Source of the DNA: Ferroacidibacillus organovorans
GTDB lineage: Bacteria > Bacillota > Bacilli > Alicyclobacillales > SLC66
Direction: 5' to 3'
Assembly: GCF_001642725.1 (NCBI RefSeq)
Contig: NZ_LSUQ01000002.1
Coordinates: 1 to 64,000, forward strand
DNA length: 64,000 nt
Position 1 is the stretch's first letter; every line of letters starts with the position of its first letter. Positions 1 to 62,650 of this stretch are shown here, piece after piece. Both the position numbers and the translations under genes were made by a program. The notes beneath the pieces are model-generated. The model was not told the DNA's origin. It made no database searches and saw only the letters and a list, made by a program, of their open reading frames with translations.

Positions 1-165
1 AGCCTCAAATGCGATTCGTGTACCTCAGGTCGAGGGTTTGCCTAAAGCTTCCTTCAGATTCCACCTCGCGATGGACACCCTTGCTCTTGGCTAACGGTAG
101 GTCTGTCGCCAACCCCCGTTCGGGACTTGCACCCTAAAGATTCCGCCCATGCCGGGCGTACATCA
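1..165. other. Compact structured non-coding element, family not identified
   Basis: No open frame of substance covers this stretch. It can fold into several short stems: TCCA/TGGA (60-63 with 72-75), AACGG/CCGTT (93-97 with 116-120) and CGCCC/GGGCG (144-148 with 154-158), joined by single-stranded GGGACTTGCACC (121-132). The composition and spacing recall multicopy non-coding tails seen in Firmicutes genomes near mobile elements or as structured RNAs. I could not assign it to a family; HEARO/omega-RNA-like RNA or an IS end are the main candidates. It probably begins left of the window. From 197 to 308 I see only a possible weak promoter (TATAAA at 231-236) for the next gene. Confidence 0.35.
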
Positions 166-23539: not shown

Positions 23540-25459
23540 CTAGCGATCACGGGTGTGGTATGGGATTGTCGACACGACAACATCCTGATTGCGCAAAAAC
23601 CATGCCTGAATGACGAAATTCCTCTGATTGTGAAGCCCAAACTGCCACCACACGCTCGGCACCAACTGTGGCAAAAGAATATGAATATGGTCTGGCTCTC
23701 TCCCTTCACGCGTCTGCAATCGCTTGACAAGACGCGTTAACGGTTGAAGGACAGACCGATACTCATTCTTAAAGGCGAGCAGTCGGCACGGCTCTCCCCA
23801 GGCTTTCCACTTTGCTTCCACAGCGGCGATCGACTCATCATCAAATCCTATGTACACAGCGATCAAATCCTGTGCGATGCTCTTTGCAAACGAGACCGAT
23901 TGCAGGGCGATGCGATCAATATCAGACAGGAGCAGCACAGAGATCACGTGGTGCTCTTCTGCCAGTTCTGTCTGCACATCAAGCGCAAGCTCACGCTCAA
24001 GCCGCGCATAGTGACGCCTGATCATGAGCGCCAAACTCACCATCAGCGGGATGGCAAAAAGCACAATCCATGCGCCTTGTGAAAATTTTGTCGCCGAAAA
24101 GACGATCGTAACAAGCGCCGTGACGACAGCGCCAACCGCATTGACAAATGCCTTCCCCTGCCAACGCTTCGTTCTAAGCTTCATCCAGCGTTTCATCATG
24201 CCGATTTGGGCGATCGTAAACGACATAAACACGCCGATGGCAAAAAGCGGAATCAGTGCATTGGTTTGCGCCTGAAAGACCACGAGCAAGACAGAGGACA
24301 GCAGTGCGAGCACCATCAAGCCGTTTGAAAACCCGAGTCGGTCACCGCGCAAACTGAGCGCTTCCGGCAAAAACTTATCCCTCGCAACCAGCGCCATGAG
24401 TTGCGGAAACCCAGTAAACGTGGAGTTTGCCGCGATGATCAAAACAAGAAATGTGCTCCACGTGATGATCTGATAGATTGGACCGTGACCGAAGTAGACG
24501 GCAGTCAGTTGGGAGAGCATCGTATTGTTCGGTTTTACGGTGATTCCTTTGACATACAACTGGTAACCAATACCGACAAGCGTGATGCCTGTGACGATCG
24601 TCATCGTGACATAGGCCTTGATTGCGCCCATTTGCTTTGGCTCCCGAAAAATGGGAACTGCATTCGAGATGGTTTCGATCCCTGTCAACGACGAACAGGC
24701 TGAACTGAATGCCTTCAATATCAGCAGCAGCGTAAAACCCTTAGGCAACACGCCAAAAGGTGGGGTTTGCGGCTGGACAAATCCGTGAGACACGTCATTC
24801 GTCACGCCCCAACCGATGAGAAAGAGCATGCATGCGGCAAATAAAAAGTTGGGCCACGAAAACAGGGTGGCTGACTCCGACACACCGCGCAGATTGACAA
24901 GCGCAATCAACGCGACGCAAATGACCGACAAGACGGTCTCATCAGGCACGAGCGCAGGATAGGCCGATGCGATCGCCAGAATCCCCGCCGAGACAGACAC
25001 CGCGACGGTCAGCACGTAGTCGATCATGAGGGCGCTTGCCGCGACGAGTGAGATCCACGGTGACTTGAAGTTGTCGCGCGCAATCGAGTACCCCCCGCCT
25101 CCGTTCGGATAGGCGAGAATCCCCATGATGTAAGAGAGCACGATGATGAGAAGAAGCAATACGGTGGCGCCGACAATTGGCAGGATGAGCCACTCTGCAC
25201 CTCGTCCCAAGCCGACAAGCTCCGTGGCGCCCGCCTCAGGACCATACGCGACAGACGAGTAGAGATCCGCAGACAAAATCGGTAGCGCCAGATACCAGAC
25301 TAAATGTTGCTGGGCCTGGCCAAGTTCTCTCGTTTTAAGCGGTCTTCCGACGAGCAGTCGTTTGACCATGCGAAACCCCGTGATTCTCCCCACAATAAAA
25401 AGGGTGGCGATCAGAAGGAGCGCAATGAGTTGCCAAATGGGTACTCCGATATCATTCAC
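23540..25459 (-). CDS. kimA: KimA-like potassium importer (APC superfamily)
   Basis: 639 aa if read from GTG 25459. About 12 helices are followed by a cytoplasmic C-terminal domain of about 150 residues. KRLLVGRPLKT, then LSADLYSSVAYGPEA and YPNGGGGYSIARDNF match the KimA K+/H+ symporter pattern. KimA aligns from around the internal ATG at 25369, so the first 30 residues (an extra hydrophobic helix) are either an extension or a wrong start. KimA is inhibited by c-di-AMP in Bacillus. No c-di-AMP riboswitch fits in the 90-base gap upstream. Adjacent to the kdp genes but separated by a terminator. Confidence 0.82.
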   Translation of the reverse strand: MNDIGVPIWQLIALLLIATLFIVGRITGFRMVKRLLVGRPLKTRELGQAQQHLVWYLALPILSADLYSSVAYGPEAGATELVGLGRGAEWLILPIVGATVLLLLIIVLSYIMGILAYPNGGGGYSIARDNFKSPWISLVAASALMIDYVLTVAVSVSAGILAIASAYPALVPDETVLSVICVALIALVNLRGVSESATLFSWPNFLFAACMLFLIGWGVTNDVSHGFVQPQTPPFGVLPKGFTLLLILKAFSSACSSLTGIETISNAVPIFREPKQMGAIKAYVTMTIVTGITLVGIGYQLYVKGITVKPNNTMLSQLTAVYFGHGPIYQIITWSTFLVLIIAANSTFTGFPQLMALVARDKFLPEALSLRGDRLGFSNGLMVLALLSSVLLVVFQAQTNALIPLFAIGVFMSFTIAQIGMMKRWMKLRTKRWQGKAFVNAVGAVVTALVTIVFSATKFSQGAWIVLFAIPLMVSLALMIRRHYARLERELALDVQTELAEEHHVISVLLLSDIDRIALQSVSFAKSIAQDLIAVYIGFDDESIAAVEAKWKAWGEPCRLLAFKNEYRSVLQPLTRLVKRLQTREGREPDHIHILLPQLVPSVWWQFGLHNQRNFVIQAWFLRNQDVVVSTIPYHTRDR

Positions 25460-28228: not shown

Positions 28229-29929
<1,701 letters not shown>

Positions 29930-29945
29930 TCAACTCCTTATCCTG

Positions 29946-30029
29946 CTAAAATTTCTCTGGTCGAACGATGACAAAAACGAGATAAAGCATGACCACAATC
30001 GAAAGCGTCAATAATACCCAGTTCTCCAC
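29946..30029 (-). CDS. kdpF: KdpF small subunit
   Basis: 27 aa from GTG 30029 (GGGGGAG upstream): a single hydrophobic helix ending VFVIVRPEKF, with RPE-K-F typical of KdpF. Position directly before kdpA confirms it. It is a lipid-like stabiliser of the KdpFABC complex. Confidence 0.85.
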   Translation of the reverse strand: MENWVLLTLSIVVMLYLVFVIVRPEKF

Positions 30030-30043
30030 GTCCACTCCCCCGT

Positions 30044-30127
30044 TCACAGCTTGTCGAGATAGCGCATCAGCGCTAGGGAAAAGCCAAATCCAATCAGTAA
30101 CAATGCGATCATGTAGAGATCGGACAT
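30044..30127 (-). CDS. 27-residue membrane peptide upstream of kdpF
   Basis: Starts at the ATG at 30127 behind a strong GGGAGGGGG and encodes one hydrophobic helix (MIALLLIGFGFSLALM) with a short RYLDKL tail. Similar tiny proteins ending in a charged D-[RK]-L motif occur ahead of kdpF in other Gram-positive bacteria. It is separated from kdpF by only 14 bases, so it is the first gene of the kdp transcript. TACAAT at 30175-30180 is a possible -10 for that transcript. Function is unknown; it may be an extra Kdp subunit. Confidence 0.7.
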   Translation of the reverse strand: MSDLYMIALLLIGFGFSLALMRYLDKL

Positions 30128-30313: not shown

Positions 30314-31015
30314 TTATTCATCGTGGGCGGAAGCGTAGAGGATGTACCCGATTCCCGCAATCGTCACGAGATAGACGGGACGTTTGGGGTTAGGTTCAAG
30401 GTAAGAGCGTAGGCGGCGTACATACACCCGCAAATACTCATGCTGATCCTGATACTCTGGTCCCCAGATCTTGCCGAGCAGATGTTCGTGCGTGAGCACC
30501 TTTCCCGCGTGCTGCACCAACTCTTTCAAAAGGTTCCACTCGGTCGGCGTCAGCCTTGTCCGCTGTTCGAACGCTTCGACCTCACGCGTCTCATGCAGAA
30601 GGCGAAACGGTCCGCACGTCAGTTCCTCCTCAATGAGCAGGCTCTGACTTCTGCGCAGCAATGCGCGAATCCTCGCCATCAGTTCTTGGAGCGAGAATGG
30701 TTTTGTCATATAATCATCCGCGCCAAAATCAAGCGCGTGAATCAGATCAGACTCCGTGTTGAGCGCTGTCAGCGCCAAAATCGGAACGGACGTTATCTTC
30801 CTGAGTCGCTTGCAAAGCTCGAATCCATCCATCTCAGGCATCCGCATGTCGAGCACGACGAGACTTGGCTCTCGCTCAAACACCTGCTCAAGCGCCGCGT
30901 GGCCGTCACCGACTGCCGTCACGCGGTACCCTTCGAGTTCGAGATTCATCGAGAGCAAGCGACGGTATCTCTCTTCGTCCTCCACAATCAAGATCGACTC
31001 TGCCTGCTGCACCAT
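30314..31015 (-). CDS. kdpE: KdpE-like response regulator (OmpR family)
   Basis: 233 aa from the ATG at 31015, chosen because AGGTGG lies 5 bases upstream; a GTG three codons earlier is inside that SD. The receiver domain has acidic pocket VEDEE, phospho-Asp in VVLDMRMPEMDG, Thr/Ser in ALTALN and Lys in YMTKPFS. The C-terminal winged helix (LTPTEWNLLKELVQHAGKVL, VRRLRSYLEP) is OmpR type. It follows the kinase gene after 12 bases, just before the kdp pump genes, which it presumably activates under K+ limitation. Confidence 0.9.
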   Translation of the reverse strand: MVQQAESILIVEDEERYRRLLSMNLELEGYRVTAVGDGHAALEQVFEREPSLVVLDMRMPEMDGFELCKRLRKITSVPILALTALNTESDLIHALDFGADDYMTKPFSLQELMARIRALLRRSQSLLIEEELTCGPFRLLHETREVEAFEQRTRLTPTEWNLLKELVQHAGKVLTHEHLLGKIWGPEYQDQHEYLRVYVRRLRSYLEPNPKRPVYLVTIAGIGYILYASAHDE

Positions 31016-31027
31016 TTTCTCCACCTT

Positions 31028-32638
31028 TTACACCATGGGTATTTCAAAGCCGACTTCAAAGCCGCTCTTCGTATTTTGCGCAAAGACCCGACCGTTGTGT
31101 GCCTCAATAATCTCTTTGACAATGCTAAGCCCTAGCCCCGATCCGCGAATCTCAGAGCGGGCATGCTCATCGCCGCGATAAAAACGCTCAAAGATTCGCT
31201 CAAGGTCTTTACCCTGAACGCCTTTTCCGCAGTCCCGCACGCGGACGCGCAGGGTATCCGGGCGCATTTCAATGAAAAGATCAATGTGATCCGCCGAGTA
31301 TTTCAGTGCGTTATCAAGCAGGTTAAACGTTGCGTCCATCAATTCATCCGGGTCGCCCAAGAGGAATTCCCCGTGTTCATCGCAAAGGTGCAACGCGACA
31401 CGCGTTTGCGTCGAGAGTCTCTTTTGGATGCGTTTGATCCACTCGGCGCCGAGAAACGGACGTTTTTGAAGATGCGCGCCCGTCGCTTTCCACGTGGAGA
31501 CTTTCAAGAGTTTATCAATCTGATTCTCTAATTGTACACTCTCATCTACGATGAATTGCGCAAACTCTGCATGCTGGTCTTCAGACAGCCGTTTTCCGCG
31601 ATACACGAGCGTCTCCGCATACCCTTGGATCAACCCGAGGGGCGTCCGCAGTTCGTGCGAGACGTTTGCGAGCAAATCCGATCGCAGACGGTCCATCTCG
31701 CGATAGCGCGCAACATTCGCCGCATCCTCTTCCATCGCTCCATAGGTGAGAAGCACCGCGATCTCACGCGCAATAATCGCGAGCAAATCCGAGAGTTGAG
31801 CGTTCCACTGGCCCCCGTGCCCGCGCAAAACCAAGACACCGCGCGCGCGGTCGCGATCGATGAGCGGGTACACTGCCGTGTTGGGAATGCGAATTCCCGG
31901 CAGGATGGTGCCCACCTCAGCGTAGACTCCACTGTACCAGACCCTTCGCGTGCGCATGACTTCGTTGATCGCGCCTGCCTCGACATGCAAAAGCGCGTTT
32001 GGGATCTCGCGAATCGAGTCAGAAATAAGTGGACCACTTCTGCAGTATGAGCGCAGAGACACCCCGTCCTCCCCTTGAACCTGCTGTAACACCTCCGCAG
32101 AAGAGAGATCCGTGTAGATGGTCACCTGCTCAAGGATGTGTGTCATCACTTCTTTGACGCTGCCCGGTTTTACCGTCGCCAGCATCCAGCCGCCCGAGAT
32201 GGCCAGTAGCTTATCGCGAAGCAACTCCTGCTCGCGGATCAGTCGCGTAAGTTTCTTCTCTTTTACGATGTAAACCATCAGCACAAGGAAAATCGCGATC
32301 ATCCAACTAGCCTGCTCTGCAATTACGGCGCTGGGCGACGCGATCGCTCCCGCTTGCGCGATGGCGATGCGCTCCAAGGATGAAACATCATAGGTTAACG
32401 GCCCGCGAAAGGACGCGCCAAGCGCCTGGTTTGCCGCGCGCAACAGGTGCGTCACAAGCGCTGGATGGTGAAGTTCGCGCTGTCTCATCGCTTCAAACAG
32501 GCAGAGGAGTGCAAAATGGGATGCCCGCAGTCGCTCTGTCGCCACACTCCACGCGTCAGAAATCTTCCAGACGATGATGGATACGGTGACGACAAGCGCC
32601 AAGGTCATCCATATACGCTGCGTTCCTTGTTTCGACAT
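31028..32638 (-). CDS. KdpD-related sensor histidine kinase lacking the KdpD N-terminal domain
   Basis: 536 aa from the ATG at 32638, which has AAGAGGTAAG upstream; the open frame runs 46 codons further without an SD. There are two membrane helices (about 10-28 and 105-122) around an 80-residue outside loop, then a GAF domain (about 150-290), a HisKA with SHELRTPLGLIQGYAETL and an ATPase domain with GSGLGLSIVKEIIEAH. Normal KdpD has an N-terminal ATP-binding domain plus Usp domain and four helices. Those are missing here; the N-terminal parts are encoded divergently at 32746. Together with kdpE it should control the kdp genes. Confidence 0.82.
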   Translation of the reverse strand: MSKQGTQRIWMTLALVVTVSIIVWKISDAWSVATERLRASHFALLCLFEAMRQRELHHPALVTHLLRAANQALGASFRGPLTYDVSSLERIAIAQAGAIASPSAVIAEQASWMIAIFLVLMVYIVKEKKLTRLIREQELLRDKLLAISGGWMLATVKPGSVKEVMTHILEQVTIYTDLSSAEVLQQVQGEDGVSLRSYCRSGPLISDSIREIPNALLHVEAGAINEVMRTRRVWYSGVYAEVGTILPGIRIPNTAVYPLIDRDRARGVLVLRGHGGQWNAQLSDLLAIIAREIAVLLTYGAMEEDAANVARYREMDRLRSDLLANVSHELRTPLGLIQGYAETLVYRGKRLSEDQHAEFAQFIVDESVQLENQIDKLLKVSTWKATGAHLQKRPFLGAEWIKRIQKRLSTQTRVALHLCDEHGEFLLGDPDELMDATFNLLDNALKYSADHIDLFIEMRPDTLRVRVRDCGKGVQGKDLERIFERFYRGDEHARSEIRGSGLGLSIVKEIIEAHNGRVFAQNTKSGFEVGFEIPMV

Positions 32639-32745
32639 TCTTCTTACCTCTTGGCGATTGTGATATGATTTCATGATATCACGGTGCAAGGACAAGGCAA
32701 TCTTGACGTTGATGGAAAGCGGATGTTCAAAAAGGAGACGTCGCG

Positions 32746-35055
32746 ATGTCGAGTGACCCCTTCCGGAGAAAATCACATGCAGAAATCATGGAGGAGATGT
32801 CCTTTCTTAAGAAGGGACACCTTAAAATCTACTTAGGCGCGGGTAGTAAAACGGGCAAAACCTACACGATGCTTCATGACGGATACGATCTGCTCGCATC
32901 CGGAATGAATGTGGTACTCTCTGGCGTCAGTGAAGAGCATCCACTTGAGGAATTTGTGAATGAAGCGCCCCTCTCCTCGATCCCGATCATCAAGGCAACA
33001 GCCCATGAGGCATCCGCAGATCTCGACGTTCAGGCGATTCTTGCGCACAAGCCAGATCTCCTGCTTGTTGATGATCTGGCGCACGCAAATCAACCGAGTG
33101 CGCGTTTCCCGACGCGTCTTGATGATGTAACCTTTTTGCTAGAGCATGGCATCCATGTGATGACGACCTTGAATATCTATGACATTGAAGAATTGCGACA
33201 AAACATCAAAAAATTGACAGGCATTGAAGTCAGGCATACGGTGCCGCTGTCCGCAGTGGCAGGCGCACACGAGATCAAACTGATCGATGTCGACCCCGAA
33301 GCGGTCCTCAAACGGCTGGAAAAAGAAAAAAAGGGCGACGCGCGCCTCACACCCGAGTTGAGCCAGGATGCGCTCTCGATTCTGCGAGAGTTTGCGCTGC
33401 GGCTTATCGCGGACGATGTGAATGAACGATTAGAACAGTACCGCAAGACGCACGCCCTGCAAAACGCATCGCCTGCGGCCGAGAAGATTCTCGTCGCACT
33501 CAGCTATAACTCGAATGGCACCCTTCTGATAAGACGCGGCCAGCAACTCGCCAATCGCTTGAATGGTGAACTTCACATCATGACAGTCACCGAAGAAAAG
33601 CAAAAGAAAACGACGGAAGAAATCGCGTTTAAAGACGCGATTCTAAAACTGGCGGATAAAGTGGACGCGACATTCCACGAAGCATTGCGCACACCCGCAG
33701 CGTCGATCTCAAGGATCATTGTGGACTATGCGTTGGCGCACGCGATATCGCGGATCGTCATCGGGCAGTCACGCCGCAGCCGCTTTGAAGAGTGGAGAAA
33801 AGGGTCAATCCTCAATGAACTGCTGGAGCAGGCCAAGCAAATCGATCTGATGGTGATCGCAGATCGCCACTCCACGCACGGTGAGCGGCTCTTGACGTAT
33901 CGTCAACGCAGCAGAAATGCGCACCCCTACGCAGCGATAAAGCAGGGCGATCTCTCGCATGTGCTACAGAAATTGCGACGCGGGCGCTTCAAGATCTATA
34001 TTGGCGCGGCGCCCGGCGTCGGCAAGACGTTCATGATGCTCGAAGAGGCGTACGATCTGAAGCGGCGGCACATCGACGTCGTCGGCGGCCTGATCGAGAC
34101 GCACAAACGTAAAGGAACCGAGGCGCAGATCCGGGATCTTGATGTGCTGCCTAGAAAGTCACTTGATTACCGTGGAACGATGTTTGAAGAAATGGATCTG
34201 GAGGGAATCCTGCGGCGGAATCCAGAAGTCGTCCTGATCGATGAACTCGCGCACACGAATATCGTGGGGAGCAAACACCAGAAGCGCTACGAGGATGTGG
34301 AAGAGATTCTCGAAGCGGGAATTTCAGTCATATCGACGGTCAACGTGCAACACCTGGAGAGCTTGCGCGACACCATTTTTCAGATTACGGGTGTCAGGGT
34401 CCGCGAGACAATCCCTGACTTCATTTTGCGCATGGCCGATGAGGTGGTGCTGATCGACGTTCCACCCGAGACCTTACAGCAGCGGATGCGGGAAGGGAAA
34501 ATTTATACGCTCGACAAGGCGGAACAGGCGCTCGCAAACTTTTTTCGGCAAGGCAACCTGATTGCACTGCGTGAACTGGCGCTGCGCGAAGTGGCCGATC
34601 ACATTGACGATCGGCTCGAAGCGCACGACGATCGAAGCGCACTGCGCGGGCCGTGGCGCAGGATGGAAGTCGTCTATGTGTGTGTCAATGCGTCGCATAA
34701 AGCGGAGTTTCTCATTCGCCGCGGATTTCGCACCGCGCACCGTATGAAGGCGACCATGTTTGTGAGTTTCGTCCAAGTGGGAACTACGCATAGCGATGAG
34801 GAACGATCCTGCTTGGAGAGTCTGCGCGCACTGACGGAACGTCTCGGGGGAACGTTCATCCTTTTGCACGCGCAAACCGCGCGGGAGATTCCGCTGACAC
34901 TCGTCAATGACATGGAGGAGAAACTCGCCACGCAAGTGGTGCTTGGCCACTCGTCGCGCTCGCGCATGGAGATCAAGCGGCGTGGCAACACCCTGCGCAC
35001 GCTGCTTCGCTCGATTCGAAGTGTCGACGTGGTTGTACTCGCACTCGCGCCGTGA
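32746..35055 (+). CDS. Tandem KdpD N-terminal/Usp protein without kinase domain
   Basis: 769 aa, soluble. It consists of two copies of the KdpD sensor half. Copy 1 is a KdpD_N domain (about 20-215) with altered Walker A GAGSKTGKTYTM (31-42) and VDDLAHANQ, then a Usp domain (about 243-375). Copy 2 is KdpD_N (about 405-610) with canonical Walker A GAAPGVGKTFMM (420-431) and IDELAHTN, then Usp (about 640-767). No helices or kinase domain follow. In full-length KdpD this half senses ATP/ionic state, and the Usp domain binds c-di-AMP in Staphylococcus. It is divergent from the kdp-linked kinase, with starts 107 bases apart, so it probably acts on that kinase in trans. The start is ATG with AAAGGAG. 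Confidence 0.9.
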   Translation: MSSDPFRRKSHAEIMEEMSFLKKGHLKIYLGAGSKTGKTYTMLHDGYDLLASGMNVVLSGVSEEHPLEEFVNEAPLSSIPIIKATAHEASADLDVQAILAHKPDLLLVDDLAHANQPSARFPTRLDDVTFLLEHGIHVMTTLNIYDIEELRQNIKKLTGIEVRHTVPLSAVAGAHEIKLIDVDPEAVLKRLEKEKKGDARLTPELSQDALSILREFALRLIADDVNERLEQYRKTHALQNASPAAEKILVALSYNSNGTLLIRRGQQLANRLNGELHIMTVTEEKQKKTTEEIAFKDAILKLADKVDATFHEALRTPAASISRIIVDYALAHAISRIVIGQSRRSRFEEWRKGSILNELLEQAKQIDLMVIADRHSTHGERLLTYRQRSRNAHPYAAIKQGDLSHVLQKLRRGRFKIYIGAAPGVGKTFMMLEEAYDLKRRHIDVVGGLIETHKRKGTEAQIRDLDVLPRKSLDYRGTMFEEMDLEGILRRNPEVVLIDELAHTNIVGSKHQKRYEDVEEILEAGISVISTVNVQHLESLRDTIFQITGVRVRETIPDFILRMADEVVLIDVPPETLQQRMREGKIYTLDKAEQALANFFRQGNLIALRELALREVADHIDDRLEAHDDRSALRGPWRRMEVVYVCVNASHKAEFLIRRGFRTAHRMKATMFVSFVQVGTTHSDEERSCLESLRALTERLGGTFILLHAQTAREIPLTLVNDMEEKLATQVVLGHSSRSRMEIKRRGNTLRTLLRSIRSVDVVVLALAP

Positions 35056-60160: not shown

Positions 60161-60847
60161 TCAAGGTGTCTCATCCGCTTCCATCGTCAGCCAGCCGCAG
60201 CGCGCCGCAGCGACGACCGCCTGCGTTCGATCAGATACGCAAAGCTTTCTCAAGATGTTACTCACGTGAACCTTGACCGTCTTATCTGTGATGCGTAGTT
60301 TTGCGGCGATCTCCTTATTGGACAGCCCCTTGCCCATGGCGTCTAACACCTCGGTCTCACGATGCGTCAGGGATTCAAACGCGGGATCTTTTTGTTTCTC
60401 GGTTTTTCGGAACGCGTCAAACACTCGCGTCTCGATCAGCATTCGACCTTGAACCGACTGACGGATGGCGAATAACAGTTCTTCAGGAGAGACGTCTTTA
60501 TGCAAAAAACCGCTCGCCCCCAGTTGAATGGCGGTTTGGGATTTGCCGTAACTCGCATACGAAGTGAGCGCGATCACGCGAATCCCGTCGCGAAACGCGA
60601 GAATTTTGCGCATGGCTTCAACACCGTCGAGTGGTCCTGGCATGACGAGATCCATGAGGATCACGTCAATCGCTTCCGTTTGACAGATCTGTACAGCCTC
60701 GACGCCAGAAGACGCCTCCGCCACAACATCCATATCCTCTGCCAGTTGCAAGAAAGCGCGCAACCCTTCACGCACCATCGGATGATCGTCGACAATCGCG
60801 ATTCGAATGCGTCGGCCACACTGCGACGGGACGTTCACCTGATCCAT
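60161..60847 (-). CDS. NarL/LuxR-family response regulator
   Basis: 228 aa. Receiver with VDDHPMVREG, phospho-Asp in DVILMDLVMPG, Thr/Ser in ALTSYAS and Lys in FLHKDVSPE. C-terminal LuxR helix-turn-helix (LTHRETEVLDAMGKGLSNKEIAAKLRITDKTVKVHVSNI quoted in pieces: LTHRETEVLDAMGKG, then NKEIAAKLRITDKTVK). It starts 3 bases after the kinase stop, so the two form one system. Confidence 0.92.
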   Translation of the reverse strand: MDQVNVPSQCGRRIRIAIVDDHPMVREGLRAFLQLAEDMDVVAEASSGVEAVQICQTEAIDVILMDLVMPGPLDGVEAMRKILAFRDGIRVIALTSYASYGKSQTAIQLGASGFLHKDVSPEELLFAIRQSVQGRMLIETRVFDAFRKTEKQKDPAFESLTHRETEVLDAMGKGLSNKEIAAKLRITDKTVKVHVSNILRKLCVSDRTQAVVAAARCGWLTMEADETP

Positions 60848-60850
60848 GCC

Positions 60851-62479
60851 TTACACCTTCTTCGCCTCAAGAAAATTCAAGCTGATTTGCGCAACAATCG
60901 TCGTGCCACAGTCCGCGTGACTCTGAATGAGCAATTGCCCATCCACACTCTGCATCCGTTCCGTCATGGTCACCAGCCCATAGCGTCGATGGGTGTCCTG
61001 CGCATCACGCGCGGGCAGACCCACACCGTCATCCGCCACCGTCAGACACAGCCTATCCAATATGAACTGAACACTCACCCTAACCGTTTTCGCTTGGGCA
61101 TGCCTCAGTGCATTGTGCAGCGCCTCATCTGCGACATGCAGCAGCGCCTTTTCAACCAACAGCGGGAGATGCTTTGGAACCTGTGGAGCGATGGATAGCG
61201 TCACGCGCGGGGAAGATTGATGCATCAGCGGCTCGATACGATCGCCTAGCTGTTCAAGCCACGTACGTTCCTCATCCGGGTGCAGCGCGTCAATCCACAG
61301 GCGCATTTCGTGTTGGCTCTGCACAATGAGCTTTTGCACGCGCGCCGTGACCCGCGCGACCTCACTCATGCTTTCTTCGTCGCTCTTTGCCGCAAGCATC
61401 CCGGCCGTTTGCGCGAGAAGACTCGCAGAAAACAGCCGCTGGCTCACAGAGTCATGCAAATCCGCAGCCAACTGCCGTCTCTCTGCCCATTTGGCGTTTG
61501 CAACTGCGTATTCGTGCAGGCGTATCGTCTCGTCAGCCGCGTGCAGCAGCCAGGCAAACGCAGTGAGAAGCTCCACGTCTGTCTCGTGAAACGAGTGAGC
61601 GAGTGAGCTCTCAACGCGGACATGCACATTCGAGTGCCCAATCGGTTGAGTCAGCGCGCTGCGCGCATCCGACAAGAAGAGTCGCTCGCTCTCCGGCAAG
61701 AGAGGAGCGGGGGATTTCGAGTCGTACGCGTATTCTGATCTCCCACTCTTTTTGTCGACGACAAAAACGAGCGTGCGCGGCGGCTGATCTTCATCCGCAC
61801 GCACCGTGACACCAGCCGCTTCATATCCGAGCTTATGGATGAATCCCTCAATCGCGATTTGATGCAGTCGATGCTGATCAAACTCCCCGACCAGCACACC
61901 TGCCAATTCAGAGAGCGCGCGAAACCTTTTGCTACGCATCCGCTCTTCAAACAAAATGGCGGCCCGGTCAATGGCGATGGCCACCTGATGGCCGACGGTC
62001 ATCAAAAGTTCCAGCGCTTCAGGTGTAAACGCGTCAATCCCTGAAGACGCGACATTAAGAATGCCGAGCGGCTTCCCTTTGCTGCGCAGCGGAATGCTCG
62101 CGTGAAACAAAAGTCCCTGTGTATCCCCGACGGCGTCGCGCAATCGGCTACAGCGCACAAGGTTAATCGCCCGATCGAGTTCCCCTTGGATAAACTGATT
62201 CTGACACTCGCACCAACCTGTTTTCAGCGCAGCCTCATCATCCCATGCCAAAGCAGGAGGTAAGCCGCTCGCACCAACCTCGACAAATGCGTGGTAGTTC
62301 TCGTCATACCGAAAGACCCACGCCGTTTGCAATCCAAGTTCCTGCGCCAAGCGCGAAAGAATCGCCTCCATGGCGGATGGAATATCGCTCGTGTCATTCA
62401 ATGCTTCTGCAGTATCTTTGAGCAGTTCAATCTGGGACGCTTTTTTTAGATACGCATCCCCGGCAAACGCGTTGTCCAT
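60851..62479 (-). CDS. GAF-domain sensor histidine kinase (NarL-partner type)
   Basis: 542 aa from the ATG at 62479 (the SD is weak; the frame is open 19 codons further). Two GAF domains (about 15-170 and 185-330), then a HisKA_3 with ERRQLAADLHDSVSQRLF and an ATPase domain with DDGVGLPARD. No membrane segment, so it is a cytoplasmic sensor. The first GAF has TGWCECQ and VRCSRL, cysteines that could bind a metal cluster or sense redox. It controls the adjacent regulator; the stimulus is unknown. Confidence 0.88.
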   Translation of the reverse strand: MDNAFAGDAYLKKASQIELLKDTAEALNDTSDIPSAMEAILSRLAQELGLQTAWVFRYDENYHAFVEVGASGLPPALAWDDEAALKTGWCECQNQFIQGELDRAINLVRCSRLRDAVGDTQGLLFHASIPLRSKGKPLGILNVASSGIDAFTPEALELLMTVGHQVAIAIDRAAILFEERMRSKRFRALSELAGVLVGEFDQHRLHQIAIEGFIHKLGYEAAGVTVRADEDQPPRTLVFVVDKKSGRSEYAYDSKSPAPLLPESERLFLSDARSALTQPIGHSNVHVRVESSLAHSFHETDVELLTAFAWLLHAADETIRLHEYAVANAKWAERRQLAADLHDSVSQRLFSASLLAQTAGMLAAKSDEESMSEVARVTARVQKLIVQSQHEMRLWIDALHPDEERTWLEQLGDRIEPLMHQSSPRVTLSIAPQVPKHLPLLVEKALLHVADEALHNALRHAQAKTVRVSVQFILDRLCLTVADDGVGLPARDAQDTHRRYGLVTMTERMQSVDGQLLIQSHADCGTTIVAQISLNFLEAKKV

Positions 62480-62650
62480 TTCGCTCAAGCCCCGTTCGCA
62501 GTTTCTTTTAAAAGTGTAGCAGAAATCACCGCGCAAGAGATACGTTTGCGCGAAGTCCTACGTCCAATGGCGTATGGAGAATCTGCGATTCCTGCGTTAT
62601 GGTCAATGGAGAGAGACAAAACGAGAGTTAGAAAATGGAGGCTTTGAAAC

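What the first reader, a model, noticed from the sequence alone, without database searches (positions are those of the whole stretch)
32746..35055. Stand-alone tandem KdpD-N/Usp protein beside a Kdp kinase that lacks this half
One 769-residue protein carries two complete KdpD sensor halves (KdpD_N plus Usp, twice) and no kinase. The second Walker A is canonical (GAAPGVGKT), the first is altered (GAGSKTGKT) with VDDLAH in place of IDELAH. The kinase encoded divergently next to kdpE has GAF, HisKA and ATPase parts but no KdpD_N or Usp. Established: KdpD_N/Usp regulates KdpD, and the Usp domain binds c-di-AMP in Staphylococcus. Inference: potassium sensing is split into a two-protein system with an active and a degenerate unit that may work as an internal heterodimer, possibly a c-di-AMP receiver in trans.
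Basis: partly seen in the sequence, partly recalled or inferred. Interest (0 to 1): 0.78.

Follow-up and report, generated by a model that had tools for sequence, protein, structure and literature searches.

The report
Double-headed Kdp pump serine kinase
The gene encodes a soluble protein made of two copies of the KdpD serine-kinase half, one complete and one that seems to have kept its ATP site but lost the catalytic residue; it belongs to a common but apparently undescribed family in bacilli that most likely shuts off the Kdp potassium pump directly, rather than serving as a missing sensor for the neighbouring kinase.

Summary
In detail: ORF 32746-35055 encodes two full KdpD_N+Usp units and no histidine kinase, and the adjacent kinase lacks both. 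The interpretation needs changing. KdpD_N is now known to be an atypical serine kinase (ASK) that inhibits the pump by phosphorylating KdpB Ser162 (PMC11018627), and split ASK/HK pairs were known before. Unit 2 has every residue required; unit 1 keeps the ATP-binding residues but lacks catalytic Glu110. The protein belongs to a Bacilli-wide clade ('class B'): in 39 unit-1 sequences the ATP residues are almost invariant while Glu110 survives in 2; in unit 2 it survives in 39/39. dN/dS (0.047) shows unit 1 is not decaying. Class B tandems stay with the pump, not with a kinase: 11 of 17 assessable loci have a c-di-AMP riboswitch and no kdp kinase, 6 have a two-component system. The neighbouring kinase is not a truncated KdpD: no DUF4118, HK domain outside the KdpD type. 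The real split KdpD is in the genome's second kdp operon, whose own tandem has two intact units. The Staphylococcus c-di-AMP motif is absent. Best reading: a two-headed ASK/pseudo-ASK brake on Kdp; a new variant of a known kind.

The parts
32746..35055 (+). Tandem KdpD_N-Usp/KdpD_N-Usp protein (class B tandem ASK), 769 aa
   Evidence: (NF038185 713.5 bits over two stretches)
32809..33420 (+). Unit 1 KdpD_N domain (pseudo-ASK: ATP-site residues kept, Glu110 -> Asp, His63, Lys123, Gln145, His146 lost)
32836..32862 (+). Unit 1 Walker A GAGSKTGKT (still GxxxxGKT)
33067..33084 (+). Unit 1 Walker B VDDLAH (E110D in E. coli numbering)
33481..33840 (+). Unit 1 Usp domain
   Evidence: (PF00582)
33976..34605 (+). 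Unit 2 KdpD_N domain (complete ASK)
   Evidence: 2r8r 230 bits
34003..34029 (+). Unit 2 Walker A GAAPGVGKT
34237..34254 (+). Unit 2 Walker B IDELAH (Asp109/Glu110 present)
34660..35046 (+). Unit 2 Usp domain (below Pfam cut-off; found by family profile and fold)
31028..32638 (-). Sensor histidine kinase: 2 TM, short extracytoplasmic loop, weak GAF, HisKA, HATPase_c; no KdpD_N, Usp or DUF4118
   Evidence: TM segments read from sequence
30314..31024 (-). OmpR/PhoB-type response regulator (KdpE-like by position)
29946..30029 (-). kdpF (27 aa, GTG start, ...VRPEKF)
   Evidence: read from sequence
28229..29929 (-). kdpA
   Evidence: TIGR00680
26188..28203 (-). kdpB, with DESAITGES (Ser162 target site)
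   Evidence: TIGR01497
25550..26152 (-). kdpC
32639..32745 (.). 107-bp divergent intergenic region between kinase and tandem gene; one weak -35/-10-like match on the minus strand, no more than chance

Best explanation
The protein is a stand-alone, two-headed atypical serine kinase (ASK) that switches off the Kdp pump after it is made. Unit 2 is the catalytic head: it binds ATP and phosphorylates the TGES serine of KdpB (E. coli Ser162), blocking the pump when K+ is sufficient. Unit 1 is a pseudo-ASK: it keeps the ATP pocket but has lost the catalytic glutamate and several conserved non-ATP residues of active ASKs, and it acts as a fixed partner that positions or allosterically gates unit 2, with the two Usp domains receiving a signal. 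The neighbouring kinase-regulator pair controls kdp transcription separately. Shown: architecture, residue pattern, purifying selection, association with the pump rather than a kinase. From literature on relatives: ASK chemistry. Inferred: that unit 2 is active on this KdpB, that unit 1 regulates it, and what the Usp domains sense.
For: Every residue shown by mutagenesis to be needed in E. coli KdpD-ASK (Walker A, adenine pair at 39/190, Asp109, Glu110; PMC11018627) is present in unit 2, and in 39/39 class B unit-2 sequences; aromatic Y/F stands at position 39 where E. coli has Trp. Unit 1: Gly30, Gly36, Lys37, Thr38, Tyr39, Asp109, Arg190 in 39/39, Glu110 in 2/39 (G 22, D 6, A 3, H 3, N 2, Q 1), with at least 9 changes on the tree. 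Other conserved residues of active ASKs are replaced and the replacement fixed: Gln145->Tyr 39/39, His146->Glu/Asp 39/39, Lys123->Thr 37/39. dN/dS 0.047 for unit 1 ASK against 0.019 for unit 2 ASK. KdpB target TGES present. Tandem gene beside kdpC in nearly all class B loci outside the family, with a c-di-AMP riboswitch and no kdp kinase in 11, a two-component system in 6 (family loci included), none with both; no DUF4118 in 8 of the class B genomes checked outside the family. In G015 the tandem gene persists next to a relic of the kinase. Short KdpD/Usp ASKs without HK are biochemically active in Deinococcus geothermalis (PMC11018627).
Against: No biochemistry on any tandem. E110D (window and its family) is conservative; only E110A was tested in E. 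coli, so residual activity of unit 1 is possible, and two class B proteins keep Glu110. In the window the gene is divergent from the pump operon, unlike most relatives. TGES is universal in P-type ATPases (own knowledge), so its presence is weak support. Domain arrangement in the model is uncertain (pTM 0.57).
Confidence: 0.68

Rival explanations
1. One reading: the tandem protein is the detached sensor half of KdpD, acting in trans on the neighbouring kinase so that the pair makes a split K+ sensor.
For: They are divergent neighbours in three genomes of the family (G000, G001, G016). Split ASK/HK chains are known (PMC11018627; Schleussinger 2006, title only). The E. coli N-terminal domain is important for signalling (PMC2714519, title and abstract only).
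Against: The kinase is not KdpD-derived: no DUF4118, HK domain outside the KdpD-type group (SH-aLRT 86-88, not starred). The same tandem occurs in many Bacilli with no kdp kinase at all. It outlives the kinase in G015.
Confidence: 0.15
2. Both units are active serine kinases: unit 1 works with Asp110, so the protein is simply a two-copy enzyme with more activity or two targets.
For: Unit 1 keeps GxxxxGKT, Asp109 and Arg190. The paralogous tandem in the genome's other kdp operon has two complete units.
Against: Across relatives position 110 is mostly Gly, Ala, His, Asn or Gln, unlikely to replace the catalytic Glu; H63, K123, Q145, H146 are lost too.
Confidence: 0.1
3. The tandem is a c-di-AMP receptor: Usp domains bind c-di-AMP and switch on the ASK, as reported for the short Deinococcus geothermalis KdpD. 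This is compatible with the best explanation, as its input step.
For: Two diadenylate cyclases in the genome. Class B relatives sit in operons with c-di-AMP riboswitches. D. geothermalis precedent (PMC11018627).
Against: The Firmicutes motif (A/G/C)XSXSX2N(Y/F) or SXS-X20-FTAXY is not met: unit 1 ALSYNSNG with Thr at 271, unit 2 CVNASHKA (Ser244->Asn) (PMC4686210, PMC8214093).
Confidence: 0.25
4. Unit 1 is a decaying duplicate without function.
For: It lacks residues conserved in nearly all active units.
Against: dN/dS 0.047. Kept in frame in 39/39 class B proteins across several families, with invariant ATP-site residues and newly fixed residues.
Confidence: 0.04

Closest known systems
KdpD N-terminal atypical serine kinase (E. 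coli KdpD; Silberberg et al. 2024, PMC11018627)
   Same: Same domain (PF02702 + Usp); unit 2 has all catalytic and ATP residues; same pump partner with TGES serine
   Different: No TM/GAF/HK; two units in one chain, the first without the catalytic glutamate
Short KdpD/Usp ASK (D. geothermalis KdpD; truncated KdpD of B. thuringiensis, 365 aa; NCBIfam NF038185 'KdpD-like non-kinase potassium sensor', 373 positions)
   Same: Stand-alone KdpD_N-Usp encoded with kdpFABC; in B. thuringiensis with a c-di-AMP riboswitch and no KdpE
   Different: Those have one unit; here two fused units with divided roles
Split kdpD of Alicyclobacillus acidocaldarius (Schleussinger 2006, title and citation only)
   Same: ASK half and HK half on separate chains in divergent kdp operons; the genome's second kdp operon (C25/C64) has the split, and the order relative L173 has the divergent layout
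   Different: The window's kinase is of another type; whether the 2006 paper noted a duplicated N-half could not be read
P. syringae KdpD N-terminal region, PDB 2r8r
   Same: Fold and about 52% identity to the query in the Foldseek alignment; phmmer match to unit 2
   Different: Single N-terminal region cut from a KdpD sensor protein

Membership tests
KdpD-type atypical serine kinase (ASK) | Walker A, aromatic39/Arg190, Walker B Asp109 + Glu110 | tested here: met
   Unit 2: all present; Phe at position 39 in place of Trp
KdpD-type ASK, applied to unit 1 | Catalytic Glu110 | tested here: not met
   Asp in the window; Glu in only 2 of 39 class B unit-1 sequences
KdpD-type ASK | Phosphorylates KdpB Ser162 | not testable with these tools
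   Target motif TGES present in the window's KdpB, but it is common to P-type ATPases
Full-length KdpD sensor histidine kinase | KdpD_N, Usp, DUF4118, GAF, HisKA, HATPase in one chain | tested here: not met
   no such protein in the genome
NCBIfam NF038185 KdpD_non_kinase | Score over cut-off 550 | tested here: inconclusive
   713.5 bits for the whole protein but as two stretches of a 373-position model
Truncated KdpD (HK half), applied to the neighbouring kinase | DUF4118 four-TM input domain | tested here: not met
   Pfam finds none; the genome's only DUF4118 match is on C25
Truncated KdpD (HK half), applied to the neighbouring kinase | HK domain groups with KdpD-type kinases | tested here: not met
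   Groups with other kinases; branch support 86-88, not starred
c-di-AMP-binding KdpD Usp | (A/G/C)XSXSX2N(Y/F) / SXS-X20-FTAXY | tested here: not met
   Neither unit has it
c-di-AMP-responsive ASK (D. geothermalis type) | Stimulation of KdpB phosphorylation by c-di-AMP | not testable with these tools
   Needs biochemistry; the genome has two diadenylate cyclases
Split KdpD, applied to the genome's other kdp operon | HK chain with DUF4118 and HK without KdpD_N, plus separate KdpD_N-Usp chain | tested here: met
   L008 kinase and L005 tandem; contiguous in G001 (L111)

The most novel reading that the evidence does not exclude
Bacilli have evolved a kinase/pseudokinase pair within the newly found KdpD serine-kinase family: a nucleotide-binding pseudo-ASK fused to an active ASK, in which the dead head reads a nucleotide (ATP/ADP or c-di-AMP) and gates irreversible shut-off of the Kdp pump. 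Comparable live/dead pairings occur in Dormibacterota (fused, reversed order), Acidobacteria (adjacent genes) and G009 (dead head on full-length KdpD, two live heads in trans).
Probability: 0.4. Interest if true: 0.68.

Novelty: new variant of a known kind. Interest (0 to 1): 0.52.

Why it matters
Kdp pump shut-off by the KdpD serine kinase was identified in 2024, and how stand-alone versions are controlled is largely open. At least 79 of 400 sampled Bacilli genomes carry a KdpD_N in a tandem-sized frame, so this is a major form in the class. A natural pair with one head disabled at the catalytic glutamate makes regulation of this kinase family directly testable by point mutation. It also warns against naming these proteins 'potassium sensors' or 'sensor histidine kinases'.

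Tried and rejected
Full-length KdpD elsewhere in the genome: none. ydaO riboswitch in the window or the second kdp operon: none. One shared duplication for class A and class B tandems: AU test p 0.025 against A-u1+B-u1, and A-u1/A-u2 are sisters (99*), so separate origins are favoured; three other AU tests did not finish. Acid habitat as an explanation for tandems (from names): not pursued further, since class B tandems turned out to be common across large-genome Bacilli families; it was not formally tested. Promoter scan of the intergenic region: no more than chance. Kinase structure job: not run, only three homologues. The supplements of PMC11018627 and the 2006 A. acidocaldarius paper could not be read, so absence of earlier mention of tandems is not proven; text searches for tandem/double KdpD and KdpD pseudokinase found nothing relevant.

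Full report
WHAT IS THERE. ORF 32746-35055 (+) encodes 769 aa with two KdpD_N domains (PF02702) and two Usp-like domains, and no histidine-kinase domain. NCBIfam NF038185 'KdpD-like non-kinase potassium sensor' matches it in two stretches, 713.5 bits in all. The AlphaFold model (36 aligned homologues, pLDDT 79, pTM 0.57) has four folded domains; Foldseek returns the P. syringae KdpD N-domain 2r8r (TM 0.93) and the S. aureus KdpD Usp 7ji4 (TM 0.84). On the other strand lie a histidine kinase (best start 32638, 107 bp from the tandem ATG), a PhoB/OmpR-type regulator, kdpF, kdpA, kdpB, kdpC and a KimA homologue.

THE GENOME HAS A SECOND CASE. PF02702 occurs in two proteins only: the window's and one on contig C64 directly after kdpB-kdpC. 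The matching kinase-regulator-kdpA end is on contig C25; the join is inferred, but in the same-genus genome G001 the order kinase-regulator-kdpA-kdpB-kdpC-tandem is contiguous (L111). That kinase has DUF4118 and HK parts and lacks KdpD_N and Usp: this is the true split KdpD. Its tandem protein has two complete units (GSAPGVGKT and GAAPGVGKT, IDELAH twice). DUF4118 matches nowhere else in the genome.

WHAT KdpD_N DOES. Silberberg et al. 2024 (PMC11018627) showed that KdpD_N is an atypical serine kinase (ASK) phosphorylating KdpB Ser162 and stopping the pump; Walker A, W39/R190, D109 and E110 are needed, with E110 activating the serine. They report short KdpD/Usp forms without HK, one of them stimulated by c-di-AMP, and species with ASK and HK on separate chains, and they cite the split kdpD of Alicyclobacillus acidocaldarius (2006). 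So a separated N-half is known; its likely job is pump inhibition, not sensing for a kinase.

TWO CLASSES OF TANDEM. Class A (in nearly all family members with a strong PF02702 match, and in order relatives checked, including the genome's second operon): both units have every ASK residue, 18/18; in a few genomes the two units are separate adjacent genes (L117, L174, L175, L042). Class B (the window; five genomes of the family and many Bacilli): unit 2 complete in 39/39; in unit 1 Gly30, Gly36, Lys37, Thr38, Tyr39, Asp109 and Arg190 are invariant while Glu110 is kept in 2/39 and has become G, D, A, H, N or Q, with at least 9 changes on the tree. Other residues conserved in active ASKs are replaced, some by a new fixed residue: Q145Y 39/39, H146E/D 39/39, K123T 37/39. 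Between the window and G001 dN/dS is 0.047 for the unit-1 ASK and 0.019 for the unit-2 ASK; the neighbouring kinase is at 0.16. Unit 1 is therefore kept, apparently as an ATP-binding pseudo-ASK. Class B u1 and u2 are each one clade (100*); class A u1 and u2 are sisters; a common duplication is disfavoured (AU p 0.025). Dead-plus-live pairs also occur in Dormibacterota (unit 2 lacks the Walker lysine and Glu110), in Acidobacteria (first of two adjacent genes has IDGLAY) and in G009 (full-length KdpD with VDGLAT and R190F beside two live single units).

THE TANDEM GOES WITH THE PUMP. Of 17 class B loci with enough flank, 11 (L038-L041, L160, L162-L166, L169) have a c-di-AMP riboswitch upstream of kdpA and no kdp kinase operon; 6 (window, L110, L123, L167, L168, L178) have a two-component system and no riboswitch; none has both. 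This agrees with the mutual exclusion reported in PMC6488665. Eight class B genomes outside the family have no DUF4118 match. In G015 the window-type tandem remains beside a 114-aa relic of the kinase with no kdpA or kdpC nearby; in G008 it lies divergent to kdpA with no kinase between (G008 is 73% complete). In the class sample, at least 79 of 400 genomes have a KdpD_N in a 740-850 aa frame (my count from the truncated list; frame length is a proxy for tandem).

THE NEIGHBOURING KINASE. It has two predicted TM segments with a short loop (read from sequence), a weak GAF, and HisKA/HATPase most like PnpS/PhoR/WalK in NCBIfam. Its HK domain and its regulator fall outside the KdpD/KdpE-type groups (supports 86-90, not starred). 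It is probably the transcriptional controller of this kdp operon, but not a KdpD missing its N-half.

c-di-AMP. The Usp loops do not meet SXS-X20-FTAXY or (A/G/C)XSXSX2N(Y/F) (PMC4686210, PMC8214093). The genome has two diadenylate cyclases. c-di-AMP control is neither shown nor excluded.

VERDICT. A confirmed observation, with an interpretation that should move from 'split sensor' to 'two-headed ASK/pseudo-ASK pump brake'. The catalytic assignment rests on residue identity and published work on relatives; the regulatory role of unit 1 is inference.

Noticed in passing
window 23540-25459 (-): KimA homologue (443 bits to B. subtilis KimA 6s3k) next to kdpC: a potassium-uptake island with two different K+ importers.
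   Followed up: partly
L117 8820-14419 (G009): kdpABC followed by two single live KdpD_N-Usp genes and a full-length KdpD whose own KdpD_N is dead (VDGLAT, R190F), then kdpE.
   Followed up: partly
L162, L163, L165 upstream of kdp (also L038-L040, on the other strand nearby): Two c-di-AMP riboswitch aptamers in a row upstream of kdpABC-tandem operons.
   Followed up: no
L071, L065, L075, L076, L081, L095, L096 (mostly Dormibacterota): Tandem KdpD_N-Usp with the reverse order: unit 1 live, unit 2 lacks the Walker lysine and Glu110.
   Followed up: partly
L121 7994-8335 (-), G015: 114-aa relic of the window-type kinase beside an intact tandem gene.
   Followed up: partly
window about 30044-30127 (-): Small membrane ORF MSDLYMIALLLIGFGFSLALMRYLDKL just upstream of kdpF.
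   Followed up: no
window 1-75 (-): Part of a group II intron (RF02001).
   Followed up: no
window 60164-62557 (-): Another two-component kinase and regulator, far from KdpDE in the trees.
   Followed up: no
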